NCBI GenBank assembly: GCA_963575745.1
Contig: CAUYUJ010022411.1
Coordinates: forward strand, 20,001 to 84,000
Source of the DNA: Prorocentrum cordatum
Lineage: Eukaryota > Sar > Dinophyceae > Prorocentrales > Prorocentraceae
Length of the DNA stretch: 64,000 nt
Direction: 5' to 3'
Part shown: positions 10,407-63,040 of the stretch, piece by piece
How positions within the stretch are numbered: position 1 is the first letter of the stretch
How the letters are laid out: each line of letters starts with the position of its first letter
Notes under the pieces: generated by a model
The model's database searches: none
Seen by the model: only the letters and a program-made list of their open reading frames with translations
What the model was told of the DNA's origin: nothing
Made by a program: the position numbers and the translations under genes

Positions 10407-11833
10407 GTCGTGCTCGACATCAATGGGATGTCATCCTGACGTGTGTGAGACGATGCATGCTGTTGATTCCTTTGAGCTCCCTGGTTCTCAGACACAATTA
10501 CCCGCGCATCGGCGCAATCTGATTTCCCAGATGCATAAGCGTGCAAAGACATTCCATCCATCTCAGGATTCTCTGTCGCAAAAGCGTTCCTGTGTTGAGT
10601 TGCCGTCGCAGGAAATCGCTGCAAACAAGCGGCGACGGGTGGCTCCACCTCAGCATCGTAGTACAGGGGACTCGCATATGCAGGCTAGAGAATGTATTTT
10701 TGCATGGTCGGGGGAGTGGACTGACCGACGGCAGGCCTTCATTGCATCGCTGCCTTGGAAAGAACGCCCATTAATGACGCGTCGGCATGAGGGGGGGAGA
10801 CCACTGGCGTTGAGAAACTTCCATTACATTTTCGAGTTGGTATCAGGGAAGGATTGGTATCACACGTTATCCTTTTCACGTCAGGGATGGAAAGAATTTC
10901 TGAAGCGGGCACTGGATGTTACTAACATGGAGGAGGCGTGGGGGTACTGTTACTTTAAACATGCACAACCTGCGGGATATGCTAGGGAGGAGGAGGAGAG
11001 GGAGAAGACGGAGGAGCAGCAAAGGAAGGAGGACGAGAAGATGGAGAAACGACTTGCGTACATTAATGAACATGCATCGGAGTGGAATGCGGAGCCTCGG
11101 GACTCGATACCGATGGAATTGATTGGGGACTCCGCCACAGGGGTGAATTGGATTAACGGTCTCTGGGCAACATCCAATATTATCTACAAGCACATTCTTG
11201 GCGACATTCAAAATAGGCTGGAGCATATCTCTGTGTTGTATGGTATGAGGCCTCCGAGTTGGGGCCACAATATGTTCAGGTGGATCTATCGAGAAGGAAA
11301 CGAAAGAGCTGACAGGCTGACATGGTTGGCCAGAACCAAAAATAGTTACGTTACGTTCCATACCTCACTTATTGAACATGCGAGTAAAACAAAACTAGAC
11401 GGCCTCCGTGGATTCTTCGACGGAGGTCGCTCTGTGGAGGGATGTGCTGCAGGATGGTGTATAGATTTGTGTGTACACGGGACGTGGCAGTTGGTGGCGG
11501 AGGAAGCTGTCTCGCTTGATGCCTCTGCTTCTGTCATGTTTTGTGAGATGATTGCAGCACAACGGCTCTGTATGGCCGTGGAGCACATTTTGGGTAGCAT
11601 CTTTCATCCAAGCAGCTGACTCATTTCATCTTGCTTGGAGCTCTCCAACACCTTTACATTTTCACATGTTGTATTGCATCCTTTTCCTTGTTCCTGCATC
11701 CTATTCCGTTGCCTATGCCTCAGTGGCTCGGCAGTGTGATGATAAGAGTTGCCCTCTCCAGCTACCCTGTGCTCCGTTTGGGAGTCTTAGGGCTCAGCTG
11801 TCACAGCTGTCCGCGCCCTGACTCAAACTCAAA
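10407..11833 (+). mobile_element. LINE L-a, 5'-truncated copy of the second LINE family
   Basis: It begins inside ORF2, at the part equivalent to position 52570 of L-e. It keeps the internal nuclear-signal region, the spacer and the permuted RNase H, followed by about 215 bp of 3' UTR ending in a short A-rich stretch. 5' truncation, the A-rich 3' end and an 8-bp flanking duplication are expected of target-primed reverse transcription. It is about 95% identical by eye to the matching parts of L-e and L-g. Confidence 0.85.
10408..11619 (+). pseudogene. LINE ORF2 C-terminal fragment with permuted RNase H
   Basis: The open frame continues upstream to an ATG at 10342 in module sequence, but only 10408-11619 is LINE-derived. 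It has a basic stretch NKRRRVAPP (a likely nuclear signal), a Trp-rich domain without a name I can give, a charged helical segment (about 10985-11070), then RNase H motifs in permuted order: GDS with Asp at 11128, EGNERAD with Asp at 11311, FDGG with Asp at 11419, and CEM with Glu at 11545. Spacings (61 residues Asp-Asp, 42 residues Asp-Glu) match the canonical enzyme once the order is rotated. It lacks endonuclease and reverse transcriptase, so it cannot move by itself. The stop is TGA at 11617. Confidence 0.85.
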
Positions 11834-21199: not shown

Positions 21200-22194
21200 T
21201 CCGGCGCGCTGGAGAGCTAGTTGGCAAGAAAAATCTCGACGGAACTTTTGCTGACTTTTGGTCGGTTGAAAAATTTGTTCTCGAAATTTGACCATTCGTT
21301 AGAGCTCTAGTATTTTTCCCGTGATATTAGATCTTATTCCCGCTCGCCATCTTGATCTCAGCTCGATCGGGTAACTTTGAAGGCCAAAAAGCACTCTGGC
21401 GGGATCGGCCGTTTCGAGTTATCTTGATATGCGCTGACGGTTTTCTCACATAACTCGAGCTCTAGGGCAGCTACAGAGCTGGTAAGCACAGCTAATGCAT
21501 GCAGAATGATCAGGCGCGTTCGCCTGTTGAACCCAGATGTCTGAACTCGGTCTGTGGGCCGAGCTAAGTCCGCAAACCTGTTCGTATTATGCGAGTTATC
21601 TTGACAGAAACTCTCGACTTTCTGTCTTAACTCGAGCTGTAAGACAGCTATCGAGCTGCTATTTACAGAAACTGATTCAGAATCGTCAGTTGCGTTTGTC
21701 TGTCGACTCCAGAGCTCTGAACTCGGTTTTCTGCTCGATCTAGAATCGCGAAATTATTCCTGTTGGTCGAGTCATCTTGAGAAGTGCTCTCAATTTTCTG
21801 CACTCAACTCGTGCTGGAAGGGCTACAGTGCTGGATGTCATATGAATCGATTTAAAGAGGTCATTCGCGTTCGCCTGTCGAACCCAGAGCTCGGAACTCG
21901 GTCTGCTGCCCGAACTAGGTCCGCGAAACTATTGTATTGTTCGAGATATCCTGAGAGATGCTGTCGGTTTTCCGCACTGACCTCGGGCTGTAGGGGGCTG
22001 CGGGGCTGGTAATGACAGGAGTCGATACGCAGACATCAGACGCGTCCGCTTGTCGCATTCAGAGGTCAAAAAATATTCACTATGAGTCAGAATGTTGGTA
22101 GGTGCTGTCGGTTTTCTCAACTTAAGTCGAGCTTGGAATCTCTACGAGTTCCCCGGCGGTAACCAAGGTTCACGGTTTACCGCCGGCGCCCAGT
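21200..22194 (+). mobile_element. Class A module, divergent subtype
   Basis: It resumes at TCCGGCGCGCTGG. Four monomers, the later ones divergent (GGTCAAAAAATATTCACTATG near 22065). The tail loop reads CCAAGGTTCACGG. CAGT at 22191-22194. The same subtype recurs at 25742-26788, 42326-43326 and 44531-45502. Confidence 0.85.
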
Positions 22195-22828
22195 TCGCCC
22201 AGACGAACTTACTCATTTGGCCAGAGATGGCCACACATTTCATCATAACTATTGTCATCGATATCCCTTCGAACGAGACTATTTGAAGGTAGTCGCCTGT
22301 CGTGGGGGGTACGACGGGGGAGTGTGCAGCAAGGGCAGTGCATGCGGTTACTGGATGCAGGTTGGCTATCTCAACATGTCTTCGCGGGCGTCTCGGCATG
22401 GAGTGTATTCTACACGATGCTCCCCCTACCCGACCTCTTCCTCTCTACATTATCATGCTGACACACCGTTGATTTGGAGAGACGCTGCTGCTGCGGCTTG
22501 GTTGGAGCCAGGCGCCACGATCACCGAATGTGAGTTGTCCGCTGCCGAAGCATTGACACGTGCCATACGCATACAGCTTCAGCAATTTGATGACAGTGAT
22601 TTTGCTTCTTGATGATGTGTTATCCCTATGCCCTCCTGGGCTCGGGAATCATCTTCAAGTTTAGCTAAGTTATATGACACCTCAGCCCGCCTCCGTGGGT
22701 AGGTGCTCGTTTCACTGCTGCTCAGATGCCTAGCTGCGTAGCTGACACGGGCTGCGCTGAAGACCAGCGCCTCGCCAGCCCGCGTAAACACAAAAACCAA
22801 GGTTGACGGTTTACCGCCGGCGCCCAGT
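22195..22828 (+). mobile_element. LINE L-b 3' fragment plus right half of a module tail
   Basis: Eight bases of a B-type module (TCGCCCAG) are joined directly to LINE sequence at about 22202. The LINE runs to an A-rich end at about 22797 and is followed by the loop core GGTTGACGG, right arm TTTACCGCCGG and CAGT at 22828. The left hairpin arm that should precede the LINE is missing, from deletion or from movement of LINE plus right arm together. Confidence 0.75.
22202..22612 (+). pseudogene. LINE ORF2 fragment: second half of the permuted RNase H
   Basis: The frame opens at Asp of DELTHLA (22202), equivalent to the second Asp motif of the permuted RNase H. It continues through GGYDGG (the nucleophile-type Asp of canonical strand 1), GSACGYWMQVGY, and TECELSAAEAL with the conserved Glu. 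It stops with TGA at 22610-22612. The C-terminus resembles L-c and L-d rather than L-e/f/g, so it belongs to the first LINE family. The reverse transcriptase and endonuclease are missing. Confidence 0.85.
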
Positions 22829-29142: not shown

Positions 29143-30251
29143 AACTCGTAGAGCTTCCCTTAGCAAGTTCTTGCTGGAAGCTTAAGAGTAATTCCGGGGC
29201 GCTGGAGAGCTAGTTGGCAAGAAAAATGTCGACGGACCTTTGCTGACTTTTGGTCGGTTAAAATTTTGTTCTCGAAATTCAACAATTCGTTTCAGCTCTA
29301 GTATTTTTTCCCGTGATATTCGATCTTATTTCTGCTCGCCATCTTGATCTCAGCTCGATCGGGTACCTTTTACTGCCAAAAAGCGTCCCGGCGGGAACGG
29401 CCTTTTCGAGTCATCTTGATACGCGTTGTCGGTATTTTGCACATAACTCGAGCTGTAGGGCAGCTACAGAGCTGGTAAGCACACCTATCGCATTCAGAAT
29501 TATCAGGCGCGTTCGCCTGTTGAATCCAGAGGTCTGAACTCGGTCTGCTAGCCGAGCTAGGTCCGCAAACCTATTCGTATTATTAGAGTCATCTTGACAG
29601 ACGCTCTCGGTTTTCTGTATTTAACTCGAGCTGTAGGGCAGCTACAGGGCTCATTGTCACAGACATCGATGGTAAATCATCAGTCGCGTTCGTCTATTGA
29701 ACCGAGAGCTCTGAACTCGGCCTGCTGTCTGAGCTAGGTTCGCGAAACTATTCGTATTGTCCGAATCATCTTGAGGAGTGCTCTCGAATTTCTGCACTGA
29801 ACTCGTGCTGGGCAGGGCTACAGTGCTGCAGGTCACAGATATCGATTTGCACACATCAGGCGTGTCTGTCCGTCGATTCCTGAGCTTGGAACTCGGGCTG
29901 CTGCTCAAACTAGGTCTGCGAAACTATTCTATTATTCGAGTCGATACTGTCGGTTTTCTGCACTTAACTCGGGCTGTAGGGGGGCTGCAGGGCTGGGAAT
30001 CACATGAGTGGATTCGCAGACGTCAGACGCGCCCGCCTTTCGCATTCAGAGGTCTGAACTCGGTTTGATACTCGAACTGGATTGCGAAACTGTTTGTTTT
30101 TTTGTTAGAGTCATCTTGAGAGGTGTGAAATCGCTTGGGCTGACAAACTGGTCGTCCTTCGGAGTTTCTTTCCACACACTATTCGATGTCAGGAAGCTCT
30201 ACGAGTCCCCCGGCGGTAAGAAAGGTTGACGGTTTGCCGCCGGCGCCCAGT
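29143..30251 (+). mobile_element. Complete class A module (reference copy, 1109 bp)
   Basis: ACTCGTAGAGCTTCC (29144-29158) is perfectly complementary to GGAAGCTCTACGAGT (30192-30206). Leader, five monomers, then the A hairpin (right arm TTTGCCGCCGG, one change) and CAGT at 30251. It starts directly after the CAGT of the previous module, giving a tandem arrangement. Confidence 0.9.
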
Positions 30252-31458
30252 TCCGGCGCGCTGGAGAGCTAGTTGGCTCGAAAAAAAAGAATTGAACTTT
30301 TCACAACTTTTGTTCGGTTGAAAATTTTGTTCTCGAAATTCAACAATTCGTTTGTGCTCTAGTATTTTTTCCCGTGATATTCGATCTTATTCCCGCTCGC
30401 CATCTTGATCTCAGCTCGATCGGGTACCTTTTACTGCCAAAAAGCACACTGGCGGGATCGGCGGTTTCGAGTCATCTTGATACGCGTTGTCGGTATTTTG
30501 TTCTTGACTCGAGCTGTAGAGCAGCTACAGAGCTGGTAAGCACAGCTATCGCATTCAGAATTTTCAGGCGCGTTCGCTCGTTGGATCAAGAGGTCTGAAC
30601 TCGGTCTGCTAGCCGAGCTAGGTCCGCAAACCTATTCGTATCATTCGAGTCGTCTTGACAGACGCTCTCGGTTTCCTGTGCTTAACTCGAGCTTTAGGGC
30701 AGCTACAGAGCTGGTAAGCACATCTATCGCATTCATAATTATCAGGCGCTTTCGCCTGTTGAATCCAGAGGTCTGAACTCGGTCTGCTAGCCGAGCTAGG
30801 TCCGCAAACCTATTCGTATTATTCGAGTCGTCTTGACAGACACTCTCGGTTTTCTGTACTTAACTCGAGCTGTAGGGCAGCTACAGGGCTCATTGTCACA
30901 GACATCGATGGGGAACCATCAGTCGCGTTCGTCAATTGAACCGAGAGCTCTGAACTCGGCCTGCTGCCCGAGCTAGGTTCGCGAAACTATTCGTATTGTC
31001 CGAATCATCTTGAGAAGTGCTCTCAACTTTCTGCACTCAACTCGTGCTGGGGGAGGGCTACAGTGCTGCGGGTCACAGATATCGATTTGCACACATCAGG
31101 CGCGTCTGTTGGTCGATTCCAGAGCTCAGAACTCGGTCTGCTGCTCGAACTAGGTCCGCGAAACTATTCTTTTATTCGAGTCGATACTGTCGGTTTTCTG
31201 CACTTAACTCGGGCTGTAGGGGAGCTGCAGGGCTGGGAATCACAGGAGTCCATTCGCAGACATCAGACGCGTCCGCCTGTCGCATTCAGAGGTCTGAACT
31301 CGGTTCGATACTCGAACTGGGTTGCGAAACTGTTCGTTTTTTTCGTCAGAGTTATCTTAAGAGCTCTGAAATCGCTTGGGCTGAAAAACTAGTCGTTCTC
31401 TGGATTTTTTTACACATTATATTCTGTCAGGAAGCTCTACGAGTCCCCCGGCGGTAAG

Positions 31459-31467
31459 AAAGGTTGA
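31459..31467 (+). repeat. Left target-site duplication of LINE L-c
   Basis: AAAGGTTGA, repeated at 37674-37682. It lies wholly inside the hairpin loop. The duplication is perfect, so the insertion is probably fairly recent. Confidence 0.9.
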
Positions 31468-32020
31468 GGACGCGGAGCTTACCTCCCGCTCTCCCTCGGC
31501 CTTGCCCCGCCGGGGGGCTCTCTCGAGCTGCATTGTGCAGTAGGGAGTTGGGTTCCACATACTGTACACTCTTCCGCACACATCTTGGACAGCCTGCGGC
31601 CCCTCTGCTGGCATCAGGCTCCTGATTGAACTGGTTACTGGGAGGCAACGCCCTGCTGGTACGAGTGGAGCACGCATACGTCTGCATCTGCTTTTGTTCT
31701 TGGGAGCGTGCCTTCTTCCATTTTTGCTCTCGTCCATTATTCATTCCACGTGTGCGAGTTGAGTATTGTTGTATCGTCTGTGCAGTCACGAACAGCTTCG
31801 GAGAGCCAGCAGGAGGGTGGAACGTCTTATATCCTCTCGGAGAGCCTAGCTGTGTTTGGGATCGATTCTTTGCAGATCTGGAAGACTTCTATTGGGAGGA
31901 TTACTGTCGCCTAGAGTGTTGCATATTTCGTCGTTCCCGACCTTATCGACACTACTCGCATCGTTCTTGGTGTCTCTGTAAGTTCAAGAAGGGTCGTTTC
32001 GCCAGTTCTTTCCAGAAGAA

Positions 32021-33091
32021 ATGGAGGTTGACGGTCAGGGTAGCAAGAGGATGAAGACGGATATGGAGGAGGAGGAGAAGGTGGACAAGACGGGAGGTGA
32101 CATTCGTGATCAAAAGGCCATGAGAGAGAAAATTCTGAGTCTTCAAAAAGATGAGAGTTTGCGATTGTTCATGCAGATGTCCTTTCAGAATCATGATGAG
32201 TCGAAGGCCGCCTCGGTGGCCACTGACGTGCGTATTAGTAGTATGGATCAACGTCTCGGGGTCCAGACAGAGAAACTCACGGCCATTGAGAAGAAACAGC
32301 AGGAGCAGGAGATTAGGCTTAAGAACTTGGAGACCCTGGCCAGCCAGGATACTGCTTCGATTGGATCCTCTAACTCTACGATAGCAGCCCCGAGATTTGC
32401 AGGACGAACATCGACGGCAAAATTTACTCCTACATATGTAGAATTGTACGGATGGGTCCAGGACTGGTCGAATCGCACGAGTAGGGAACTTACGATGATC
32501 GACGATACGGATGCCTGCACACTACTCCAGAACACCCTGGGTCTATTGAAAGCGGATAACGAGCAGTTACACGGTCAAGTGGATGTGGTCAGCTCTGAGA
32601 AACTTGCCAGATCGAAACCGATGACGGGGAATATCAAGATTAGATTTAAGGTTGGGGCAGGGAGTGAAGTGGTCTATGCTGTACAGCGCGCTCTCACACG
32701 TATAAATGATGACGAATCGCTTAACCACGCCTTTTACACCAAGGTGAAGTCGAAGGTGTCTCGTTTGAGAGTTCGTGCAGAGGTCCCAGACGAGAAGATC
32801 CCACACAATCAAGCAGTTGGCCGATTTTATGGTGTCTGGAGCAGGAAGCACCCCACCATCTTCCTCAAAGGATCGACTGGATACGGAAAGTCGCCGTCCA
32901 CGATGTACTCTGACCCCGTTGAGGGGAAGCGGAGCTTGCTGGCCGAGTATCAGGCGGCCAGCTTCGGGGGATCTGGGCAGTGGCGAGTTATCCCAGCAGC
33001 TTGGACGTCTTTCGCCCAGAGGCACGGCATCACCATGACGGCGACAGAGCTCGAGGAGCTAGTCACGGACTCCAGGGCTGCTTCTCAGTGA
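32021..33091 (+). CDS. LINE ORF1 protein (L-c)
   Basis: 356 residues, starting at an ATG in a good context (AGAAGAAATGG). By position this is the ORF1 protein that in LINEs binds the element RNA and may act as a nucleic-acid chaperone. The N-terminus is acidic with a basic patch SKRMK (residues 8-12). A likely coiled coil spans about 75-107, rich in E, K and Q. A Ser/Thr-rich linker is followed by the conserved segment FTPTYVELYGW (135-145), shared with the second family (FTPTFIQLPGW). A charged domain of about 170 residues of unknown fold follows. I see no CCHC knuckle or RRM. The stop is TGA at 33089-33091, and the same frame stays open downstream into ORF2, which suggests readthrough. Confidence 0.85.
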   Translation: MEVDGQGSKRMKTDMEEEEKVDKTGGDIRDQKAMREKILSLQKDESLRLFMQMSFQNHDESKAASVATDVRISSMDQRLGVQTEKLTAIEKKQQEQEIRLKNLETLASQDTASIGSSNSTIAAPRFAGRTSTAKFTPTYVELYGWVQDWSNRTSRELTMIDDTDACTLLQNTLGLLKADNEQLHGQVDVVSSEKLARSKPMTGNIKIRFKVGAGSEVVYAVQRALTRINDDESLNHAFYTKVKSKVSRLRVRAEVPDEKIPHNQAVGRFYGVWSRKHPTIFLKGSTGYGKSPSTMYSDPVEGKRSLLAEYQAASFGGSGQWRVIPAAWTSFAQRHGITMTATELEELVTDSRAASQ

Positions 33092-36000
33092 CGCCGACGG
33101 GCGGAGCCGACGGAAGTCCGCTTCGCCACGCTCAACCTTCAACGTGCGGGGAGGAAGGATGACAAAGCTTATAGTGTTCTGACGAGGGTAGTCTACGGAG
33201 CACACCTAGGCTGGGATTTCCTGGGGGTACAGGAGTCTCAGAACATCGACGTTATGGCGCAATGGCTTGTCAAAATGGGACTGTACTACCACGTCTCGGA
33301 GGATCGCCGTGCTATGATACTCTATCGGAGGGCTGATAGTGTTCGAGGCCAATGGGCCTCAGAGAGGTGGTGCGCGATCCTTGCTGGACGGATGCTCTTT
33401 GTCTCATTGTACTTGCCTGATGCCAGCCAGCCCGAGTTTCTGGAGATATCACATTGTGCACTCCAGTCGGTGAGCTTGCTCAGAAAGTACGTATGCCGTC
33501 GTTATGGCTTCTGTCGTCTTGTTGTTGCCATGGATGCGAATGTTGAGATACAGCCACACTTACAGCATGAGGAGGAGGTTTATTCGGGAGGAGGCTTGGA
33601 GGTAGTGCAGATCCAGGCCACGGGGACCAAGGAGCGGGAGAGGAAGGAGAAGGTGGAGAGCTTGCGACAGGAGGTGGAGGATTGGTTGGTTCAGGAGCGT
33701 ATGTGTGCTTCGAATTCTTTTGGAGCTAGGAAGCCGACTTGGTTTGATTATCGGAAGGGGTCCCGCCGTGAAGTGCTGGATTACATCCTTGTTCCTCATG
33801 GATCGCAGGTGTCGGGGTGCTCGGTTGAGTTTCTGTACGTAGGACAGCAGCAGGGAGCCGTGATGAGATTATCAGATCATGCCCTTGTTCGAGCTTCTCT
33901 GAGAGTGGCTTCCAGGGAGTCGGCGAGACGGAATCTCTCACGACGTTCTCGAACCTTGAAAGGCTGGGACCCACTCAACTTGTCTGCTCGTCGATCGTGT
34001 CGCCAGTTGTTGGATGCCAATCTATTTTCGTGCCAACTTATGTGTCAGGCAGAGAGTGTTATCTATTCGTGTGCGTCGGCCACCGAATGTACCCCGAAGC
34101 GCCCAGCTCGACCCCCTGAACGATCGGAGTTGCTGCGGTCCTTGGATGTGCAGGTCTACCGGAGGAGGGCGGAGAGGGGGACGTTAGCCTATCGACTTCT
34201 ACGCAGAAAAAGAGATCGGGAAGCGAGAAAATTCAAACGAGCAAAGCTGGAATGGGAAGCGGAGCGTCCACGTAAAGCAGCTTTGAAGGCGGTGAAGATT
34301 GAGGGGGAGGAGAGCGTGGACAGGGAGAGGTGGATGGAGGAGATGATGAAGTTGAAGGAGGTCTGCGAGGATGAGGAGGAGCGTCGGCGGTCGATCAAGA
34401 TTGTCCAGGGCCTCAGGGAGGAGCTCCAGGGGTCCCCCAGACCCCAGGAGGCGACGCTCACGATGGCGGTGGTCCTTCGGGCCCGAGCTCGACTCAACCC
34501 TGGAAAAGCCACGGGACCAGACGGGGTGGGGGCAGAAGTAATCAAAGCGCTTCCGTGGAGAGCCGTTCGCACTATCAAGCGATTATTTTGTGATATCTTA
34601 CGTGGCATTGTTGTACCTCCATCTTCTTGGCATCAAACATTGACGACACTACTTCCCAAATCTTATCCGATATGCGATGTTTCTGATACGAGGCGTATTT
34701 CTGTGGAGAGTATCTTTAAGAAGTGGTACAGTACTTGTCTCTCGATCATGCTTGAACCATATTGTCTCCAGGCTGGCACTCATGCATCGTTATTCGGTTT
34801 CGTTCCCAAAAGATCATGCACCGAGATATTTGCAGGACTTAAGGCAGCAGCACAACACGCCTCACAGTGGGGGAAGGATCGACGTCTGGTTCTGGGGTCA
34901 GCGGATGTGAAGCAAGCTTTCCAGAACACGAAAATCTCGACGGTCAAACGTGCGTTCGACGTCCTCTCTATCCCTCCCTGGCTCCAGTACGGTGTGCTCG
35001 TGCCTATGCCGTGCGAGGTCACTTCGCTTCTCTTCCAGGGCTTGCAGCTGCCAGATGTGGGAATTGATACCCACATCAGGACAGGTGGGAACGACAGCCC
35101 CTCCTTGTGGAACCTGATAGTCGTTGCGATGTGGGCTCCTTTATTTAAGCTTTGGGATGAGCAGGGGATTGGGTTTCATTGTCTGGATCCAAACTCGGTG
35201 GGAGAAGTTTCGGCCTCGGTTCCTGTACACCACTTGCTATATGCCGACAACATCTTTATCTTGGGATCTTCGGAGGAGGAGTTTAGGCGACAGGTAGGAG
35301 ACATGACAGAGACTCTGCGGGGATGGGGATTCGAATGGAAGATCGAGTCGCTCGAGGTCGCGTTTATCGGTTTCTCGGAGAAGCCAAAACATCCTATCCT
35401 GGTTCGGGTTCAGGATCAGATGGTGCCGTTCAAAGTAGTTGATGAGATGAATGTCTTGGGGAACAGCATATACTGTAGCTATAGGGAGGCACACCAGGAC
35501 CTTCGGCGGCGGATCGGGGCCGCGCGACGAGCCTTCCATGCGCATGCAGCTTATTTTAGATCAAAGGCAGTCCCGTTTTCGGCCAAGTGTAGGAGTTATA
35601 TCACTCGGGTTCAGAGCATTCTCATTTATGGAAGTCAAGGTATTAGTTGGGACAGGGACTCCTTGCAGAGCCTGAATGTCTTTGAGGGAAATTGTCTTTA
35701 CCAGATGACGTCACCCCAAAAGCCAGCCTCCGAAAGTTGGGTTGTTTGGAAGCCAGCTCGACTCAGAATTGCTAGACGGATGTTCTTTGAAGCAAAGTGC
35801 CAGAGTGCAGTGCAGAGAGTTCTTTATTCCTTGTGGCAGCTTGGAGCTGACATAGCATCATATTTTGGAGCTAATGTCGACAGCGGATATCAGATTCCTG
35901 AGTCGGAGCTGAGCCCAGGAATGGTCGCGGGCTCTCTAGTTACCAATGGGATGGGGGAGGTCTCTTCAGTTACCAATGGGATGGGGGCTGTCTCTTCAGT

Positions 36001-37612
36001 TACTAGTGGGATGGGTGCAGTCTCTTCAGATATGAATGGGATGGGTGTGGTCTCTTCTGATATGCATGGGATGGTCTCTCCAGTTACCAGTGGGATGGAT
36101 GTGGTCTCTTCAGTTACTGGTGGGATGGTGGGAGTCTCTTCAGTTACCAGTGGGATGGGTGCTGTCTCTGATATGCATGGGATGGTCTCTCCAGTTACCA
36201 GTGGGATGGGTGTGGTCTCTTCAGTTACTAATGGGATGGTGGGAGTCTCTTCAGTTACCAGTGGGATGGGTGCTGTCTCTGCAGTTACTAATGGGATGGG
36301 CGCAGTCTCCTCAGATACGAATGGGATGGGCGCTGTCTCTTCAGATATGCATGGGATGGTCTCTTCTGCTATGCCCTCTGATAGGGCCTCTTCTTCTCGA
36401 GATGTTGAAGTTCCCTGTGAGCGGGGGGGGCCTAGGGATTCCCCCAGGCCCCCCCCGAAACGTCGGAGGGTGGCTGTTCCTGGACCTGGACAACAGACGG
36501 TGTATCCTCGTGCGCATCGTGACGCACGCCGGCTTCTGATGTGCTGTACCCCGAGGTGGGAGGAGAAAAGGACACTGGAGTCAAAATATTGGCGTTCACA
36601 GTGGAAGTGGAAGGAGGCCTCGAAACTGACACGATTAGGCAGTACTAAGGGGCAGGCGACGGGTGAACATCCTTGGTGTTTCATGTTCCAGACGATATTT
36701 CCCTCGTTTGTGAATCTGGAGGATCGGTGGTGGAGGGCGTGCTCTTTCTCTTACTCTGACTTCGTTCAGTATTGCAGGCAGTTCCTGGAAGCTTGTACTT
36801 TGGGGTCTCTGTTTGACTTGTTTGTTGTCCGTGGAGGAACTGGAGGGAGAGGAGACTACATAAAGGAGAGGGGGGAGGAGATGTTGGCTCGTCCGTTGTC
36901 GGCGAAGGAGTCCGAGAAGCTGGCCCAGAGATTGGCCTCGAACAATGAACAGGAGCCGACTTGGGATCTGAGTGATGATGGGATCGGTCTCGAGCTGACG
37001 GGCGATTCGCTTCTTATCTGTAACTGGATCAATGGTCTCTGGAAGGTTGAGGGAGGAGAAGGAGGAGATGGGGCTTCTTATCGTAGGCGGGTGGCAAATA
37101 TTATTTCTCTTTTGGAAGAGTTGGAGGAGGAAGGAATACGACCCCCCTCATGGGGCAACGACTTCATTCGACACATATATCGAGAGAGTAACACAGTAGC
37201 TGATGAACTTACCCACTTAGCACGGGAAGGCCAGATATTCAGAGAGCTGTTCCACCACCATATCTTTCGTTCTGATGTCCGAGACAACTTTCGAGTTATT
37301 GGCCTCCGCGGATCCTTCGACGGCGGAGTGTGTGCCCAAGGTGTGGGCGTTGGCTGGTTTCTGCAGATTGGATATATTCCTCGATTCCATGACCCTTACC
37401 CTGACCCTGAGCATAGAGATAAGAGAGCTCGTGTAGTCTCCCTCTTCCCCCAAGCCTCCTCTCCTTGTCCAATCATATGGGAAATAGTAGGGCGTTGTGC
37501 ACAGGCACTCCCCTCCCATAGCAGTATCACTGACGCTGAGCTTTCGGGTCTCGAGGGCCTCTTGCGGGCCGCAGTCCAGGTGGCCCAAGACCTCCAGCTG
37601 CAGAGAGACTAG
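33092..37612 (+). CDS. LINE ORF2 polyprotein: endonuclease, reverse transcriptase, permuted RNase H (L-c)
   Basis: The first ATG is at 33254 (1452 residues from there), but endonuclease homology begins earlier in the same frame, right after the ORF1 TGA. The APE-type catalytic Asn (FATLN, 33134) and Glu (GVQE, 33233) lie before that ATG; MDANVE (33530) and SDH (33872) lie after it. The reverse transcriptase (about 34500-35400) has motif A ADVKQAF (Asp at 34904), motif B-like GGNDSPSLWN, and motif C LLYADNIF with Asn (35249) where the second catalytic Asp is expected. A Met/Val/Ser/Gly repeat (35925-36370) and a nuclear-signal-like PKRRRVAV (36455) follow. The RNase H motifs are permuted: GDS Asp 37004, NTVAD Asp 37202, FDGG Asp 37319, DAEL Glu 37538. 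The stop is TAG at 37610. Confidence 0.9.
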   Translation, partial: RRRAEPTEVRFATLNLQRAGRKDDKAYSVLTRVVYGAHLGWDFLGVQESQNIDVMAQWLVKMGLYYHVSEDRRAMILYRRADSVRGQWASERWCAILAGRMLFVSLYLPDASQPEFLEISHCALQSVSLLRKYVCRRYGFCRLVVAMDANVEIQPHLQHEEEVYSGGGLEVVQIQATGTKERERKEKVESLRQEVEDWLVQERMCASNSFGARKPTWFDYRKGSRREVLDYILVPHGSQVSGCSVEFLYVGQQQGAVMRLSDHALVRASLRVASRESARRNLSRRSRTLKGWDPLNLSARRSCRQLLDANLFSCQLMCQAESVIYSCASATECTPKRPARPPERSELLRSLDVQVYRRRAERGTLAYRLLRRKRDREARKFKRAKLEWEAERPRKAALKAVKIEGEESVDRERWMEEMMKLKEVCEDEEERRRSIKIVQGLREELQGSPRPQEATLTMAVVLRARARLNPGKATGPDGVGAEVIKALPWRAVRTIKRLFCDILRGIVVPPSSWHQTLTTLLPKSYPICDVSDTRRISVESIFKKWYSTCLSIMLEPYCLQAGTHASLFGFVPKRSCTEIFAGLKAAAQHASQWGKDRRLVLGSADVKQAFQNTKISTVKRAFDVLSIPPWLQYGVLVPMPCEVTSLLFQGLQLPDVGIDTHIRTGGNDSPSLWNLIVVAMWAPLFKLWDEQGIGFHCLDPNSVGEVSASVPVHHLLYADNIFILGSSEEEFRRQVGDMTETLRGWGFEWKIESLEVAFIGFSEKPKHPILVRVQDQMVPFKVVDEMNVLGNSIYCSYREAHQDLRRRIGAARRAFHAHAAYFRSKAVPFSAKCRSYITRVQSILIYGSQGISWDRDSLQSLNVFEGNCLYQMTSPQKPASESWVVWKPARLRIARRMFFEAKCQSAVQRVLYSLWQLGADIASYFGANVDSGYQIPESELSPGMVAGSLVTNGMGEVSSVTNGMGAVSSVTSGMGAVSSDMNGMGVVSSDMHGMVSPVTSGMDVVSSVTGGMVGVSSVTSGMGAVSDMHGMVSPVTSGMGVVSSVTNGMVGVSSVTSGMGAVSAVTNGMGAVSSDTNGMGAVSSDMHGMVSSAMPSDRASSSRDVEVPCERGGPRDSPRPPPKRRRVAVPGPGQQTVYPRAHRDARRLLMCCTPRWEEKRTLESKYWRSQWKWKEASKLTRLGSTKGQATGEHPWCFMFQTIFPSFVNLEDRWWRACSFSYSDFVQYCRQFLEACTLGSLFDLFVVRGGTGGRGDYIKERGEEMLARPLSAKESEKLAQRLASNNEQEPTWDLSDDGIGLELTGDSLLICNWINGLWKVEGGEGGDGASYRRRVANIISLLEELEEEGIRPPSWGNDFIRHIYRESNTVADELTHLAREGQIFRELFHHHIFRSDVRDNFRVIGLRGSFDGGVCAQGVGVGWFLQIGYIPRFHDPYPDPEHRDKRARVVSLFPQASSPCPIIWEIVGRCAQALPSHSSITDAELSGLEGLLRAAVQVAQDLQLQRD
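35925..36370 (+). repeat. Coding minisatellite in LINE L-c
   Basis: About 15 head-to-tail units of roughly 24-30 bp encode variants of SSVTNGMGAV and SSDMHGMVSPVTSGM. All units keep the frame. It lies between the post-reverse-transcriptase region and the nuclear-signal region. L-e and L-g lack it. The long minus-strand open frame here is its shadow. Confidence 0.9.
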
Positions 37613-37673: not shown

Positions 37674-37682
37674 AAAGGTTGA
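37674..37682 (+). repeat. Right target-site duplication of LINE L-c
   Basis: AAAGGTTGA identical to 31459-31467, preceded by the LINE's A-run and C, and followed by CGG and the right hairpin arm. Confidence 0.9.
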
Positions 37683-37704
37683 CGGTTTACCGCCGGCGCC
37701 CAGT

Positions 37705-38767
37705 CCGGAGCGCTGGAGAGCTAGTTGGCTCGAAAAAAAAGAACTGAACTTTTCTCAACTTTTGCTCGGTTGAAAATTCTGTTCTGAAAATTTGAACATT
37801 CGTTAGAGCTCTAGTATTTTTTCCCGTGATATTCGTTCTTATTCCCGCTTGCCATCTTGATCTCGGCTTGATCGGGTACCTTTTGCTGCCAAAAAGCACA
37901 CTGGCGGGATCGGCCGTTTTGAGTCATCTTGTCACGCGCTGTCGGTATTTTGTACTTAACTCGAGCTGTAGGGCAGCTACAGAGCTGGTAAGCACAGCTA
38001 TCGCATTCAGAATCATCAGGCGCGTTCGCCTGTTGAATCTAGAGGTCTGAATTCGGTCTGCTAGCCGAGCTAGGTCCGCAAACCTATTCGTATTATTCGA
38101 GTCATCTTGACAGACGCTCTCGGTTTTCTGTACTTAACGCGAGCTGTAGGGCAGCTACAGAGCTCATAGTCACAGAAATCGATGGGGAATCATCAGGCGC
38201 GTTCGTCTGTTGATTCGAGAGCTCTATAATCGGCCTGCTGCTCGAGCTAGGTTCGCAAAACTATTAGTATTGTCCGAATCATCTTGAAAAGTGCTTTAAT
38301 TTTCTGCACTGAACTCGTGCTTGGGGAGGGCTACAGTGCTGCGTGTCAGAGAAATCGATTTGCACAGATCAGGCGCGTTCGTCGGTCGATTAGAGCTCGG
38401 AACTCGGTCTGCTGCTCGATTTTGATCTGCGAAACTATTGTATTATTCGAGTCATCCTGAGAGATGATGTCAGTTTTCTGCACTTAACTCGGTCTTCAGC
38501 GGGGCTGCAGGGCTGTTAATCACATGGGTCGATTTGCAGACATCAGACGCGTTCGCCTAGTGCATTCAGAGGTCTGAATTCGGTTGATACTCGAACTGGA
38601 TTGCGAAACTATTTGTTTTTTCTTAGAGTCATCTTGAGAGGTCTGAAATCGCTTGGGCTGAAAAAACTAGTCGTTCTCTGGAGTTTTTTCCACACTATAT
38701 GCTGTCAGGAAGCTCTACGAGTCCCCCGGCGGTAACAAAGGTTGACGGTTTACCGCCGGTGCCCAGT
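37705..38767 (+). mobile_element. Class A module, resumed body
   Basis: It resumes at CCGGAGCGCTGG. It shares a leader variant (TTGGCTCGAAAAAAAAGAA) with 30252. Monomers, 3' inverted repeat, loop CAAAGGTTGACGG and CAGT at 38767. Confidence 0.85.
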
Positions 38768-39850
38768 TATTGCTGGAAGCTTAAGAGTAATTCCGGGGAG
38801 CTGGAGAGCTAGTTGATAAGAAAAATATCGACGGACCTTTTGCTGACTTTTGGTCGGTTGAAAATTTTGTTCTGAAAATTTGAACATTCGTCAGAGCTCT
38901 AGTATGTTATCCCATGATATTCGATCTTATTCCCGCTCGCCATCTTGATCTCAGCTCGATCGGGTAACTTTGAAGGCCAAAAAGCAGGCAGGCGGGAACG
39001 GCCGTTTCGAGTCATCTTGATACGCGCTGTCGGTTTTCTCAAGATAACTCGAGCTCCAGGACAACTACAGAGCTGGTCAGCACAGCTCAATGCATTCAGA
39101 ATGATCAGGCGCGTTCGCCTGTTGAATCCAGAGGTCTGAACTCGGTCTGCTAGCCGAGCTAGGGTCGCAAACCTATTCGTATTATTCGAGTCATTGTAGC
39201 AGACGCTCTCGGTTTTTCGTACTTAACTCGATCTGTAGGGCAGCCACAGAGCTGATAATCACAGAACTCGATCGAGAATCATCAGGCGCGTTCGTCTGTT
39301 GAATCACGAGCTCTGAACTCGGTCTGCTCCCCGAGCTAGGTTCGCGAACCTATTCGTATTGTTCGAGTCATCTTGAGAAGTGCTCTCGGTTTTCTGTACT
39401 TAAATCGTGCTGGGGGAGGGCTATTGTGCTGCTGGTCACAGGAATCGATTTCGAGACATCAGGCGCGTCCGTTCGTCGAACCGAGAGCTCGGAACTCGGT
39501 CTGCTGCTCGAACGAGATCCGCGAAACTGTTGTATTATTCGAGTCATCCTGAGAGGTACTCTCGGTTTTCTGCACTTAACTCAGGCTGTATGGGGGGCTG
39601 CAGAGCTGGTAATCACAGGAATCGATCCGCAGACATCAGACGCGTCCGCCTGTCGCATTCAGAGGTCTGAACTCAGCTCGATTGGAAAACTGTTCGTTTG
39701 TTTTGTTAGAGTCATCTTGAGAGGTCTATAATCGCTTGGGCTGAAAAACTGGACGTTCTCTGAAATTCTTTTCCACAGTATATATTGTCAGGAAGCTCTA
39801 CGAGTCCCCCGGCGGTAAGGAAGGTTGACTGTTTACCGCCGGCGCCCAGT
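38768..39850 (+). mobile_element. Class A module, resumed inside its head
   Basis: It resumes as TATTGCTGGAAGC, equivalent to GCAAGT|TATTGC in the A head. Leader, four monomers, hairpin (loop GGAAGGTTGACTG) and CAGT at 39850. Confidence 0.85.
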
Positions 39851-49181: not shown

Positions 49182-49998
49182 TAATGGACCTCGAGGCTCC
49201 CCTGAGGCTCGAGAGAAGGCTGATACTGAGGCGGTCGACATCGCGACCAACCCTATGCACCCCAAGTACGACCCCAAAGAGTCCGCCAAGCTTGCAATAC
49301 GTTATGCTATGATCCAGGAGCGTGCGACTGTGTGGGATATATCCTCAGAGGGTTTTGCTGCTGAGTTCAAGGGTGACTCATTACTTATCTGCTCCTGGCT
49401 ACATTGGAAATGGAGATGTGAGAATCGTGGCTACTGCAAGAGGACAGCTGCCATTATCGATTGTACCTTTGAGCTCGCTGCGTGTTTCAATCTGAGGCCT
49501 GCTGCCTTGGGACGTGGGATATGGAGACGTGAATTCAGGAAGGACAATACACGAGCGGATGAATTGACGCAGGAGGCCAGATGTGGCCGCACATGCTACA
49601 GAACTCATTGTTATTTATATCCATTCGAAACTTATCTCTTACCGTTCGCTATCAGGGGAGGCTTTGATGGCGGGGATGACCAGCAAGGATCAGGATGTGG
49701 TTTCTGGCTTCAGATCGGCTTAATCAATACTCAGTGCAATCCCAGTGAGATAGGCATCGCTTCCGCGAGAACCGTGGGCCCCTTCCCTGCTGGGCATGAG
49801 TTTGCTGTTTCTAGTGCCGTGCCCCTCGTTTGGAGGGATGTGGCCGAGGCCGCGTGGCTCCTTGAAGGAGCTACAGTCACAGAATGTGAATTGTCGGCAG
49901 CCGAAGCGCTGCTCAGCGCTGCCCGTGTGCTTCTGCGGGACCTGTCCTCGCCCAGCTGCACTCAGCTGGGAACGCGAGTCCAAACAAACAAAAACCAG
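49182..49998 (+). mobile_element. LINE L-d, 5'-truncated fragment of the first LINE family
   Basis: Only the region just before and through the permuted RNase H remains. The 3' end (AACAAACAAAAACCAGG) is A-rich and runs into ACCAGG, as expected if it entered a class B loop (GACCAGGTTGACGG). The rest of the loop is lost. Confidence 0.75.
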
Positions 49999-53000: not shown

Positions 53001-53970
53001 AGGGAAGGATTGGTATCATACGTTATCCTTTTCACGTCAGGGATGGAAAGAATTTCTGAAGCGGGCACTGGATGTTACTAACATGGAGGAGGCGTGGGGG
53101 TACTGTTATTTCAAACATGCACAACCTGCGGGATATGCTAGGGAGGAGGAGGAGAGGGAGAAGACGGAGGAGCAGCAAAGGAAGGAGGACGAGAAGATGG
53201 AGAAACGACTTGCGTACATTAATGAACATGCATCGGAGTGGAATGCGGAGCCTTGGGACTCGATACCGATGGAATTGATTGGTGACTCCTCCACAGGGGT
53301 GAATTGGATTAACGGTCTCTGGGCAACATCCAATATTATCTACAAGCACATTCTTGGCGACATTCAAAACAGGCTGGAGCATATCTCTGTGTTGTATGGT
53401 ATGAGGCCTCCGAGTTGGGGCCACAATATGTTCAAGTGGATCTATCGAGAAGGAAACGAAAGAGCTGACAGGCTGACATGGTTGGCCAGAACCAAAAATA
53501 GTTACGTTACGTTCCATACCTCACTTATTGAACATGCGAGTAACACAAAACTAGACGGCCTCCGTGGATTCTTCGACGGAGGTCGCTCTGTGGAGGGATG
53601 TGCTGCAGGATGGTGTATAGATTTGTGTGTACACGGGGCGTGGCAGTTGGTGGCGGAGGAAGCTTTCTCGCTTGATGCCTTTGCTACTGTCATGTTTTGT
53701 GAGATGATTGCAGCACAACGGCTCTGTAGCATCTTTCATCCAAGCAGCTGACTCATTTCATCTTGCTTGGAGCTCTCCAGCACCTTTACAATTTCACATG
53801 TTGTACTGCATCCTTTTCCTTGTTTCTGCATCCTATTCCGTTGCCTATGCCTCAGTGGCTCGGCAGTGTGATGATAAGAGATGCCCTCTCTAGCTACCCT
53901 GTGCTCCGTTTGAGAGTCTTAGGGCTCAGCTGTCACAGCTGTCCGCGCCCTGACTCAATTTTAAAAAAAC
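50039..53970 (+). mobile_element. LINE L-e, decayed second-family copy with a misplaced 3' UTR piece at its front
   Basis: 50039-50230 matches the end of ORF2 and 3' UTR of this family (compare 11549-11755). It is joined directly to the middle of the endonuclease at about 50231. The rest runs collinearly to a 3' UTR and an A-run near 53962-53969. The order 3' UTR then body suggests a junction between two tandem copies with sequence lost between them. Confidence 0.8.
50231..53751 (+). pseudogene. LINE ORF2 remnant (L-e): end of endonuclease, reverse transcriptase, permuted RNase H
   Basis: Endonuclease motifs VLDYLCIPSSW and RLSDHALLTLLVPE (50290-50425) open the frame. A TAA at 50842 and a two-base insertion near 50955 follow. 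The reverse transcriptase continues in another frame with a TGA at 51284 where the sister copies have TGG or TGT, ASLDVQTAFDN at about 51459-51490, a frameshift near 51617, and HALWAENILLFS near 51780 (motif C with Glu for Asp). Further shifts lie near 52075 and 52250. The last part (52255-53751) is open and holds NKRRRVAPP and all four permuted RNase H motifs. The copy is inactive. Confidence 0.85.
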
Positions 53971-59543: not shown

Positions 59544-62500
59544 GTGTCGTGGTTGAGGCCTACACTCAGGGGCTCCGTGGACCCCAGAAGGATTCGCTTG
59601 TCGGACCATGCCCTGCCCACCTTGCTTGTCCCCGAATCGGCCGCTCCGACTCGACGTTGGAGAACGAAGCCACGGCAGACGTTCACTCATTGGTGCTGCG
59701 AGGAGGCCTCGGAATTGAACGTTTCGGCTAACCTTGATCGCCGCTTGTATGCTGCAGCTCGTTGCCCACCTGGCCTCTGCGCGGAGGAATTGGCTCCTGT
59801 GATCTTGGATGCATGTACACAGGACAAGGAGTCATGCACCAATGTCCCAAAGAAAATGCAGATCCCCAGAAAGACTGATCGTCATAAGGAACTTGATGAT
59901 GAATATCGCCGGCTGCGTCGTGAAGGAGGGGAGGAGGAGGAGCTCATGAGGGTTAAGAAGGAGCGAAGGAAGGATATGCGTGCACACACTCGTCGCCGAC
60001 TCGAATACGATCATCGTGACGGGGAGCTCACTCGGACGGTGGTGGGCAAACTGAGTTATGACAGTGTGCTCACGAAGGATAGGGAGTTGTGGGAGAAGGC
60101 GCTCTATGCTCACGGATTCGGCAAGTACCACTGTGCTGCGCAAGGGATACGAAACGTGGAGTGCATTGAAGAGAGGAGGAGGAGGAGGAGGAGGAGGTTG
60201 CAGGACACGAACTCTCAGGCCGTCTCCCCCATTTCCATGTCCGTATTGTTGCAGGCACGATCACGCTTAAAGTGTGGTAAGGAGGTGGGTAAGGATAGAA
60301 TTTCCCCTTCTAGGTTGAAGCGTATCACGTGGGTAGGCTTGCGTCATATTCTTCGGTTATTCCAGAACCTCTATCTTCAACGGTACCCTACTCCTCGGAT
60401 TTGGTCTGAGTTGCTTGTGGTGTTGATGCCGAAAGCTAAGGATACCACTAAGTTGTCTGATATTCGAGCTCTCGTTTTACTTATCAGCCTAAGCAACTGT
60501 TATACTTCATGTTTGGTTGAGATTGCTGAAGGTTATCTAAAAAGGGTTCCACACTATCTACATAATTACGGATTTTGCAAGGGAAGACGCACGCACGATA
60601 TCACCGCCATGCTTGAGCACGTCACTACACATGCTCTGGAGTGGGGAAAAGATGAGACCCTGCACCTTGCGGCACTAGATGTGCAGACAGCTTTTGATAA
60701 CGTCACGGTTGAGAAGGCCAGTCGGGCCTTGGATGCCATCCCTGGGCTTCCTAATGGCCTTGCGTTGGCGTTGCTCGCTCCCAGTACCCTGGGCACAGCG
60801 GACTTTACCTTCCAGGACTCCACGGCGACGGGTATTCCCTGGGACGTATGTGTGCGTACTGGCAGTGTGGAGGCCCCCTTCCTGTGGAAGCGTATGACTC
60901 TACTCATGTGGGATAAGATTGTACTGAATTGGGAGGAGGAGAAGCTGGGGTACGACTTGGGGGAGGAGGCTGGCGGGGGGTATCTTACTCGCGCACTTTG
61001 GGCCGATAACATTTTGCTTTTCTCGAAATCCAAGATTGAGCTCGCACGTATGGTGGGGGACTTCTCGGCTCAGCTTTACACACACGGTTTCAGATGGAAA
61101 GATGCCTCACTACACTATCTTGCTCTTGGGGGGGACTCTGAAGGCGCCTCGTCGGGGAACCTCGTTGTCCACGTGAACGATCTCGGTGCCCTGTGTCTTC
61201 CGCGATGCTCTGAAATGGAGTGCCTGGGTTGCCTTGTCACGACCAAGACTGACAAACACCATGCTGTGGCTTGGAAATTGGCTCGGGGTTGGAAGCGATT
61301 TAATCAGTTCCGCAAGTTTTATACGAATCGTGCTGTACCCTTCCAGAAGAAAATCAAGCACTATGAATCTAGGTTGCGTAGCTTTGTACTTTACGGCGTC
61401 GAGGGCATGCCAGCGGACCATCACACCTTGAAGCAGTTGCACACGTGGGAAGGTAACATATGGTGTTCCATGGTACGTCGCCCGAAACCTGCCAACATGG
61501 GTTGGAGTCTGTACTACTGTAACTTGTATCATCGTGGGCGGCGTATGCTCCTGGAATTGGGACGACCGTCTCTTGTGCAACTGTTCTTGTTTCGTCAGTG
61601 GCAGTCGGCTGAGGATTGTACGTTTGCTGTGAAACGCCTGAACCCAACACCCGCGCAGATTCCTCCAGGTACATTCGTTTCTTCAGGTAAACTTGGCCCC
61701 AACGTCTTTGCTGCATGTGTGCCACCGCCGGCCAAGAGACAACGTCAGGACGAGCCCATGTACGTGTTACCAGATATTGTCAGCTCGGCATCAATGGGAA
61801 GTCATCCTGGTGTGTGCGAGACGATGCATGCAGTTGATTCTTTGAGCTCCCTGGTTGTTCTCAGACACAATTACCTGCACATCGGCGCAATTTGATTTCC
61901 CAAATCCATAAGCGTGCAAAGAAATCCCATTGCCCTGCTGTTGCTCAGGATTCTCTGTCGCTAAAGCGTTCCTCTGTTGAGCTGCCGTCGCAGGAGATCG
62001 CTGCAAACAAGCGGCGACGGGTGGCTCCACCTCATCATCGTAGCACAGGGGACTCGCATATGCAGGCTAGAGAATGCATTTTTGCATGGTCGGGGGAGTG
62101 GTCTTGCCGACGGCAGGCCTTCATTGCATCATTGCCTTGTAAAGATCGCCCATCAATGACACGTCGACATGAGGGGGGGAGACCACTGGCGTTGAGAGAC
62201 TTCCATTACATTTTCGAGTTGGTGTCAGGGAAGGATTGGTATCATACGTTATCCTTTTCACGTCAGGGGTGGAAAGAATTTCTGAAGCGGGCGCTGGACG
62301 TTACTAACATGGAGGAGGCATGGGGGTACTGTTATTTCAAACATGCACAACCTGCGGGGCATGTTAGGGGGGAGGGGGAGAGGGAGAAGACGGAGGAGCA
62401 GGAAAGGAAGGAGGAGGAGAATAAGGCGAAACGAATTGCGTACGTAAATGAACATGCATCGGAGTGGAATGCGAAGCCTCGGGGCTCGATACCGATGGAA

Positions 62501-63040
62501 TTGATTGGTGACTCCTCCGCGGGGGTGAATTGGATTAGCGGTCTCTGGGCAACATCCAATATTATCTACAAACACATTCTTGGCGACATTCAAAACAGGC
62601 TGGAGCATATCTCTGTGTTGTATGGTATGAGGCCTCCGAGTTGGGGCCACAATATGATCAAGTGGACCTATCGAGAAGGAAACGAAAGTGCTGACAGGCT
62701 GACATGGTTGGCCAGAACCAGAAATAGTTACGTTACGTTCCATACCTCTCTTATTGAACATGCGAGCAAAGCAAAATTAGACGGCCTCCGTGGATTCTTC
62801 GACGGAGGTCGCTCTGTGGAGGGATGTGTTGCAGGATGGTGTATAGATTTGTGTGTACACGGGGCGTGGCAGTTGGTGGCGGAGGAAGCTTTCTCGCTTG
62901 ATGCCTCTGCTTCTGTCATGTTCTGTGAGATGATTGCAGCACAACGGCTCTGTATGGCCGTGGAACACATTTTGTGTAGCCTCTTTCATCCAAGCAGCTG
63001 GCTCATTTCATATATGCTTGGATGTGCTTCTTCACTCTAA
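59544..63040 (+). pseudogene. LINE ORF2 main part (L-g): reverse transcriptase and permuted RNase H
   Basis: 59544-61895 is one open frame of 783 residues: endonuclease end RLSDHALPTLLVPE, a long basic linker (EERRRRRRRRLQD), reverse transcriptase with GKDRISPSRLKRI, motif A LDVQTAFDN (Asp 60678), SVEAPFLWK as motif B-like, motif C ALWADNILLFS (Asp 61005, Asn 61008), and a thumb-like region. A frameshift near 61845 moves to the frame 61892-63040: NKRRRVAPP, a Trp-rich domain, and permuted RNase H with GDS Asp 62510, SAD Asp 62693, FDGG Asp 62801 and CEM Glu 62927. It ends with TAA at 63038, later than the sister copies because their TGA is TGG here. Confidence 0.85.

What the first reader, a model, noticed from the sequence alone, without database searches (positions are those of the whole stretch)
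37004..37540. Circularly permuted RNase H at the C-terminus of the LINE ORF2
In canonical RNase HI the active-site order is Asp (DG, strand 1), Glu (helix A), Asp (DS, strand 4), Asp (N..AD). In L-c the order is GDS Asp (37004), NTVAD Asp (37202), FDGG Asp (37319), DAEL Glu (37538). The same order appears in L-a, L-d, L-e and L-g, and L-b has the matching last three motifs. In L-a the spacings are 61 residues for the DS-to-AD pair and 42 for the DG-to-E pair, against 64 and 38 in E. coli RNase HI. All four acidic residues are kept in two divergent LINE families, which suggests a working enzyme whose gene was rotated. I know of no described LINE with this arrangement, but I cannot search.
Basis: partly seen in the sequence, partly recalled or inferred. 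Interest (0 to 1): 0.88.

Follow-up and report, generated by a model that had tools for sequence, protein, structure and literature searches.

The report
Circularly permuted RNase H in LINEs
An abundant family of jumping genes carries an RNA-destroying enzyme (RNase H) whose two halves are joined in the opposite order, yet which keeps its catalytic residues and its predicted folding elements; I found no description of such an enzyme in nature.

Summary
Residues 1296-1506 of the LINE ORF2 (36977-37609) are an archaeal-type RNase H domain with its halves swapped: β4-αB-αD-β5-αE, then β1-β2-β3-αA. The four catalytic acids and the archaeal-type Arg are invariant in 8 of 8 divergent proteins aligned, three window families and five database proteins. 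With halves swapped back, profile alignment to 36 canonical RNases H covers 124 of 145 columns (pairwise E 2e-14). In native order it covers 63. AlphaFold gives the permuted order for the whole domain (pLDDT 81, pTM 0.80) and a confident βββα unit for the second half alone, whose best structural matches include RNase HI. The domain is as constrained as the reverse transcriptase (dN/dS 0.08-0.12 against 0.07-0.09). The genome search listed 140 copies at 96-100% identity, 41 in the full 1506-aa frame. Pfam finds no canonical RNase H in ORF2. Activity and three-dimensional superposition of the whole domain are not shown. No report of a natural permuted RNase H was found, in an open-access library only.

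The parts
31982..33091 (+). ORF1 frame of the LINE (369 aa, stop to stop), directly abutting ORF2; no Pfam match at E up to 1
33092..37612 (+). ORF2 frame, 1506 aa (stop to stop; true start not determined): endonuclease, reverse transcriptase, linker, permuted RNase H
33092..33931 (+). APE-type endonuclease region (QE, D-x-N and SDH motifs; motif names recalled)
   Evidence: Pfam PF03372 only E 0.019 over residues 209-263, below its cut-off; motifs read
34682..35338 (+). Reverse transcriptase core (RVT_1), with ADN instead of ADD in motif C at 35240-35251
   Evidence: RVT_1 E 1.5e-8 over residues 531-749; motif C
35942..36421 (+). Low-complexity in-frame repeat linker between RT and the C-terminal region (limits approximate)
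   Evidence: translation; dN/dS 0.47-0.49
36977..37609 (+). Circularly permuted RNase H domain (residues 1296-1506)
36977..37279 (+). First half of the domain = second half of canonical RNase H (β4, αB, αD, β5, αE)
   Evidence: native order matches template columns 65-127; RNase HI 3aly_A and 4e19_B, about 30% identity
37280..37609 (+). Second half of the domain = first half of canonical RNase H (β1, β2, β3, αA)
   Evidence: (tested on the B1 counterpart)
37004..37006 (+). Catalytic Asp D1305 (GDS; counterpart of E. coli D70)
37181..37183 (+). Arg R1364 (YRE), counterpart of the conserved His, as in archaeal-type RNases H
   Evidence: invariant 8 of 8; H-to-R rule from PMC4640811, passages
37202..37204 (+). 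Catalytic Asp D1371 (VAD; counterpart of D134)
37319..37321 (+). Catalytic Asp D1410 (FDGG; counterpart of D10)
37538..37540 (+). Catalytic Glu E1483 (DAEL; counterpart of E48)
11101..11616 (+). Permuted RNase H of family B, copy B1 (compact form, spacings 61 and 42)
53257..53748 (+). Permuted RNase H of family B, copy B2 (helix αA shortened at its end)
62483..62998 (+). Permuted RNase H of family B, copy B3 (end approximate)
49348..49944 (+). Permuted RNase H of family C (end approximate)
22175..22585 (+). Fragment of family D: last three motifs only (Asp of PDEL at 22202)

Best explanation
The C-terminus of this LINE's ORF2 protein is a naturally circularly permuted, archaeal-type RNase HI. 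Shown by sequence and prediction: its chain begins at strand β4, runs through αE, and continues over a stretch of about 20 residues into β1-β2-β3-αA, where the protein ends. Inferred: the two halves fold together into one RNase H unit, so that D1410, E1483, D1305 and D1371 form the usual two-metal site. Inferred: after the endonuclease nicks the target and the reverse transcriptase copies the RNA onto it, this domain cuts the RNA strand of the RNA:DNA hybrid so that second-strand synthesis can proceed, as the RNases H of other LINEs are thought to do (recalled). Inferred origin: tandem duplication of a canonical RNase H followed by loss of the outer halves, in an ancestor of these LINE families.
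Confidence: 0.93

Rival explanations
1. Domain-swapped or split RNase H: the two halves do not pair within one chain, but complement the opposite halves of a second ORF2 molecule, so the active unit is a dimer.
For: Sequence and conservation cannot tell cis from trans pairing. LINE ORF2 dimers are proposed for some elements (recalled).
Against: The single-chain model is predicted as one unit with pTM 0.80, and the 35-41 residues between the AD and DG aspartates leave a linker that could span within one chain (inference). AlphaFold on one chain cannot exclude swapping.
Confidence: 0.1
2. An RNase H-derived domain that has lost nuclease activity and only binds RNA:DNA hybrid or helps the RT.
For: No activity has been shown. 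Fold and binding can outlive catalysis.
Against: All four acids and the Arg are kept in 8 of 8 divergent proteins, and dN/dS equals that of the RT.
Confidence: 0.08
3. Unrelated fold whose motifs mimic RNase H by chance or convergence (for instance a PelC-like or formyltransferase-like α/β unit).
For: Foldseek ranks PelC first for the whole model, and formyltransferases tie in the VIA list for the second half.
Against: The five leading PelC rows have TM 0.27-0.29 and rmsd above 12 Å. The two RNase H rows show 29-30% identity where all other rows show at most 14%. The profile match spans both halves with all catalytic columns in register.
Confidence: 0.02
4. Assembly or frameshift artefact that juxtaposes halves of two RNases H.
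For: None found.
Against: 41 of 140 listed copies carry the same 1506-aa frame, family B has its own intact 1392-aa frame, and five database proteins show the same order.
Confidence: 0.005

Closest known systems
Archaeal-type RNase HI (RVT_3, PF13456; e.g. Sulfolobus tokodaii RNase HI 2ehg, Halobacterium RNase H1 4e19, LC11-RNase H1 3u3g)
   Same: Catalytic D-E-D-D, Arg in place of the conserved His, GDS and RExN..AD motifs, profile match over 124 of 145 columns once the halves are swapped
   Different: Order of halves is reversed; the domain starts at β4 and ends at αA
RNase H of canonical LINEs (I group, plant L1 and others, list in PMC4640811, passages), and L158 of the same genome
   Same: RNase H in ORF2 of a LINE; in L158 C-terminal to the RT; presumed role in removing template RNA
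   Different: Canonical order β1 to αE, read by eye in L158
RNase H upstream of RT: oomycete Utopia (PMC4640811, passages) and L001 of this genome; L156 and L157 have it directly after the endonuclease
   Same: RNase H captured by a non-LTR element; L156 and L157 share the FDG/DAEW style of motifs (read by eye)
   Different: Canonical order, and N-terminal to the RT in Utopia and L001; what follows in L156 and L157 was not fetched

Membership tests
RNase HI, archaeal-like (RVT_3) | Four catalytic acids D-E-D-D | tested here: met
   Invariant in 8 of 8 aligned proteins
RNase HI, archaeal-like (RVT_3) | Arg replacing the conserved His | tested here: met
   Invariant 8 of 8; rule from PMC4640811, passages seen
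RNase HI, archaeal-like (RVT_3) | Secondary structure in canonical order β1-β2-β3-αA-β4-αB-αD-β5-αE | tested here: not met
   Same main elements, permuted order
RNase HI, archaeal-like (RVT_3) | Pfam gathering score | tested here: not met
   Best native-order E 0.0062; even swapped, 20.6 of 21.6 bits for B1
RNase HI, archaeal-like (RVT_3) | Homology of both halves to the family | tested here: met
   Swapped profile spans template columns 2-127 of 145; second half alone above 200 of 200 shuffles, though with only 15% hhalign probability
RNase HI, archaeal-like (RVT_3) | Three-dimensional superposition of the whole domain and clustering of the acids | tested here: inconclusive
   Sequential aligners only; each half matches RNase HI apart, at middling scores; coordinates not available
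RNase HI, archaeal-like (RVT_3) | Metal-dependent cleavage of RNA in RNA:DNA hybrid | not testable with these tools
   -
APE-type LINE (non-LTR retrotransposon) | Reverse transcriptase domain | tested here: met
   RVT_1 35 bits over a cut-off of 29.6; best PDB sequence match is LINE-1 ORF2, E 6e-4
APE-type LINE (non-LTR retrotransposon) | N-terminal APE-like endonuclease in the same ORF | tested here: inconclusive
   PF03372 below cut-off; SDH and D-x-N motifs present
APE-type LINE (non-LTR retrotransposon) | No terminal repeats; A-rich 3' end; target-site duplication | tested here: inconclusive
   A-run followed by a 9-mer at 37674 that also stands at 31459; exact ends not settled; terminal repeats not searched for

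The most novel reading that the evidence does not exclude
This is the first natural circularly permuted RNase H known: an old, catalytically intact permutation that a whole LINE clade has kept through deep divergence. The clade also carries an altered RT catalytic motif (ADN for ADD) and spread to very high copy number. The join between RT and RNase H, and so the path of the hybrid from polymerase to nuclease, was thereby rebuilt.
Probability: 0.75. Interest if true: 0.82.

Novelty: new variant of a known kind. Interest (0 to 1): 0.75.

Why it matters
RNase H is one of the most studied enzymes and folds (recalled), and the main text of the 2014 survey of its superfamily (PMC3985635) contains no word beginning 'circular' or 'permut'. 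A natural permutant that is conserved and amplified would show that LINE RT-RNase H fusions tolerate re-wiring of the chain. It gives a natural test case for folding and for RT-RNase H geometry. Domain annotation by ordinary profiles misses it: none of 7 related ORF2 proteins scanned whole rang RNase H in Pfam at E up to 1. LINEs recorded as lacking RNase H may therefore be misjudged.

Tried and rejected
Looked for a remnant of the first half upstream of the GDS motif, as tandem duplication might leave: the 181 residues upstream in 7 proteins score 13.5 against canonical RNase H and 7.9 against the second half, inside the null of 100 shuffles (maxima 18.8 and 19.9). No trace, so the duplication route stays inference.

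Protein search with the domain region of L-c found nothing, although the RT-region search later found proteins that do carry the domain. One search is therefore a miss of the search, not absence. A scan of viral contigs with one pattern gave 26 stretches and no relative.

Foldseek and VIA with the whole model did not list RNase H high. I read this as the effect of the permutation and tested the second half apart. The second-half sequence profile found no RNase H in the PDB. By HMMER against a small set of canonical sequences, the second-half profile had no hit below E 0.001 either, while the swapped profile had 25 and the native one 15 of the sequences tried.

Papers: searches (open-access PMC only). 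No paper on a permuted natural RNase H showed in titles or abstract starts; lists were partly capped (25 of 32; 5 of 6). I saw passages only of PMC5890265, PMC4640811, PMC3985635, PMC2628886, PMC3578095, PMC7824862, PMC2848206 and PMC8303175. In the last three the words 'circularly permuted' concern methylases, a wHTH fold and a ribosomal RNA title. One DOI was not held. Dinoflagellate, perhaps Prorocentrum cordatum (~4.15 Gbp per the abstract start of PMC10449503, against 4.13 Gb here), is my guess from genome size.

dN/dS caveats: the pairs are not independent. In the L-c group 2 of 28 pairs gave no ratio, and the rest are at most 0.115. Family B pairs (36) range from 0.076 to 1.68, 1 pair gave no ratio, and one B copy has a stop in the domain. 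The two comparisons rest on 5 amino-acid changes each in the domain and share the window copy. The regular expression misplaced the AD motif of P0002; one search gives the right spacing (66 and 41).

Full report
WHAT IS THERE. The window holds a LINE whose ORF1 frame (31982-33091) abuts ORF2 (33092-37612, 1506 aa without a stop). Pfam finds a reverse transcriptase (RVT_1, E 1.5e-8) and a sub-threshold endonuclease match, and no RNase H at E up to 1. Five further places in the window carry the same region: family B three times, family C once, and fragment D with the last three motifs.

RELATIVES. In the window's own 4.13 Gb genome, the search scored 140 of 5347 first-look candidates and lists all 140 as matches at 96-100% identity, so the count is a lower bound. 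By my count of the table, 74 of 140 have the top score with 100% identity, 41 of 140 sit in a 1506-aa frame, and 137 of 140 have no stop inside the matched stretch. For family B 150 of 15272 candidates were scored, and many sit in a 1392-aa frame; I read one of these. A protein search with the RT region of L-c returned 5 proteins: P0002, P0003 and P0004 carry the domain in the same order, P0005 lacks the C-terminus, and P0006 is a distant RT protein with 22% identity. A search with the RT of family B returned P0007 and P0008, both with the same order. The hosts of these proteins are not given.

CONSERVATION. Eight domains (L-c, B1, C, P0002, P0003, P0004, P0007, P0008) align with 24 invariant columns. 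Among these are the GDS Asp, the AD Asp, the DGG Asp, the helix Glu and the Arg of the YREGN motif. That Arg stands where other RNases H have His; Arg is the mark of the archaeal-like type according to PMC4640811 (passages). Not every feature is constant: DG-to-E spacing runs from 42 (B1) to 75 (P0003), owing to a variable insert between β2 and β3.

SWAP TEST. I built a profile of 36 canonical archaeal-type RNases H: 2ehg and 35 sequences of at least 105 residues out of the 80 loci. In native order the permuted domain matches template columns 65-127 only (63 columns, score 71.9). With halves swapped, and with columns limited to those of the compact copy B1, it matches columns 2-127 (124 columns, score 88.6, pairwise E 2.1e-14), with all four acids in register. 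The first half alone scores 70.6 and the second alone 22.9. Shuffling columns 200 times gives at most 16.45 for the second half and 24.06 for the swapped whole. A scan of 57 rotations of the full native alignment shows a broad plateau near 79.5-79.8 where the halves are swapped, against 72.2 for the native order, and loses the first-half match where that half is cut. In this scan the match begins only at template column 31, because of the β2-β3 insert; 60 shuffles reach at most 26.0. Single-sequence tests agree but are weaker. RVT_3 for B1 goes from E 0.047 (half) to 4.3e-4 (nearly whole) on swapping, while L-c changes little (0.029 to 0.024) and C gives no RVT_3 match. With other cut points L-c goes from 0.027 to 0.0016. 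Over the eight, 5 of 8 swapped (best 5.1e-4) and 4 of 8 native (best 6.2e-3) ring RVT_3 at E up to 1. Against the PDB, LC11-RNase H1 (3u3g) improves from E 0.26 to 0.02.

SELECTION. Between the window copy and two diverged subfamily members, dN/dS is 0.08 and 0.12 in the domain, 0.07 and 0.09 in the RT, 0.12-0.13 in residues 281-440, 0.21-0.27 in the endonuclease and in residues 1111-1295, and 0.47-0.49 in the low-complexity linker. The domain figures rest on 5 amino-acid and 13-18 silent changes each. The domain is held as tightly as the polymerase.

HOW IT MOST LIKELY WORKS. Shown: order, conservation, predicted secondary structure, constraint. Inferred: the halves fold together; the four acids bind two metals; the domain removes template RNA after target-primed reverse transcription. 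Permutation places β4, not β1, next to the RT side and leaves αA at the very C-terminus of ORF2 (21-27 residues after the Glu in 6 of 8; 44 and 50 in C and P0003). The path of the hybrid from RT to nuclease therefore need not be that of canonical fusions. Duplication followed by loss of the outer halves is the usual route to permutation (recalled), but no remnant was found.

CONTEXT IN THE SAME GENOME. Matches to canonical RNase H profiles are common there: 150 scored with PF00075 and 80 with PF13456. I read four of these places by eye. L158 is a LINE frame with a canonical RNase H at the C-terminus. L001 has one between endonuclease and RT. L156 and L157 have one directly after the endonuclease; what follows was not fetched. 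PMC4640811 calls the position upstream of RT unique to oomycete Utopia. At least three RNase H arrangements thus coexist in one genome.

NOVELTY. Searches for permuted RNase H in open-access papers showed none by title or abstract start, three papers that hold both sets of words concern other things, and the superfamily survey PMC3985635 has no word beginning 'circular' or 'permut' in its main text. Subscription literature and repeat databases were not searched, so novelty is likely but not proved. As a permuted homologue of a known enzyme family in a known element class it is a new variant of a known kind.

Noticed in passing
35240-35251 and 60999-61010; P0002-P0005, P0007, P0008, L074: The RT catalytic motif C reads YADN or WADN instead of the usual ADD in 8 of 8 relatives read (P0001-P0005, P0007, P0008, L074), while the distant P0006 has YADD. 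A conserved second-Asp-to-Asn change in an intact LINE family is unusual (recalled); one paper search for YADN listed two papers, neither relevant by title.
   Followed up: partly
L001 (G000:C4603); L156, L157: L001 is a LINE frame with a canonical-order RNase H between endonuclease and RT, a position that PMC4640811 calls unique to oomycete Utopia; L156 and L157 have one directly after the endonuclease, the rest not fetched.
   Followed up: partly
35942-36421: In-frame minisatellite (repeats like VTSGMGAVSS) inside ORF2 between RT and C-terminal region; its length seems to differ between subfamilies (frames of 1449, 1469 and 1506 aa).
   Followed up: no
28192-31467 and 37704-39850: Copies of L-c are often flanked by the same satellite-like repeats; L019 and L035 show L-c copies joined head to tail.
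   Followed up: no
37684, 22174 and 26 other places: The 11-mer GGTTTACCGCC stands just after the L-c A-run, just before the truncated fragment D, and at 28 places of the window on the + strand in all. It may be a repeat that the LINEs insert next to, or a shared tail.
   Followed up: no
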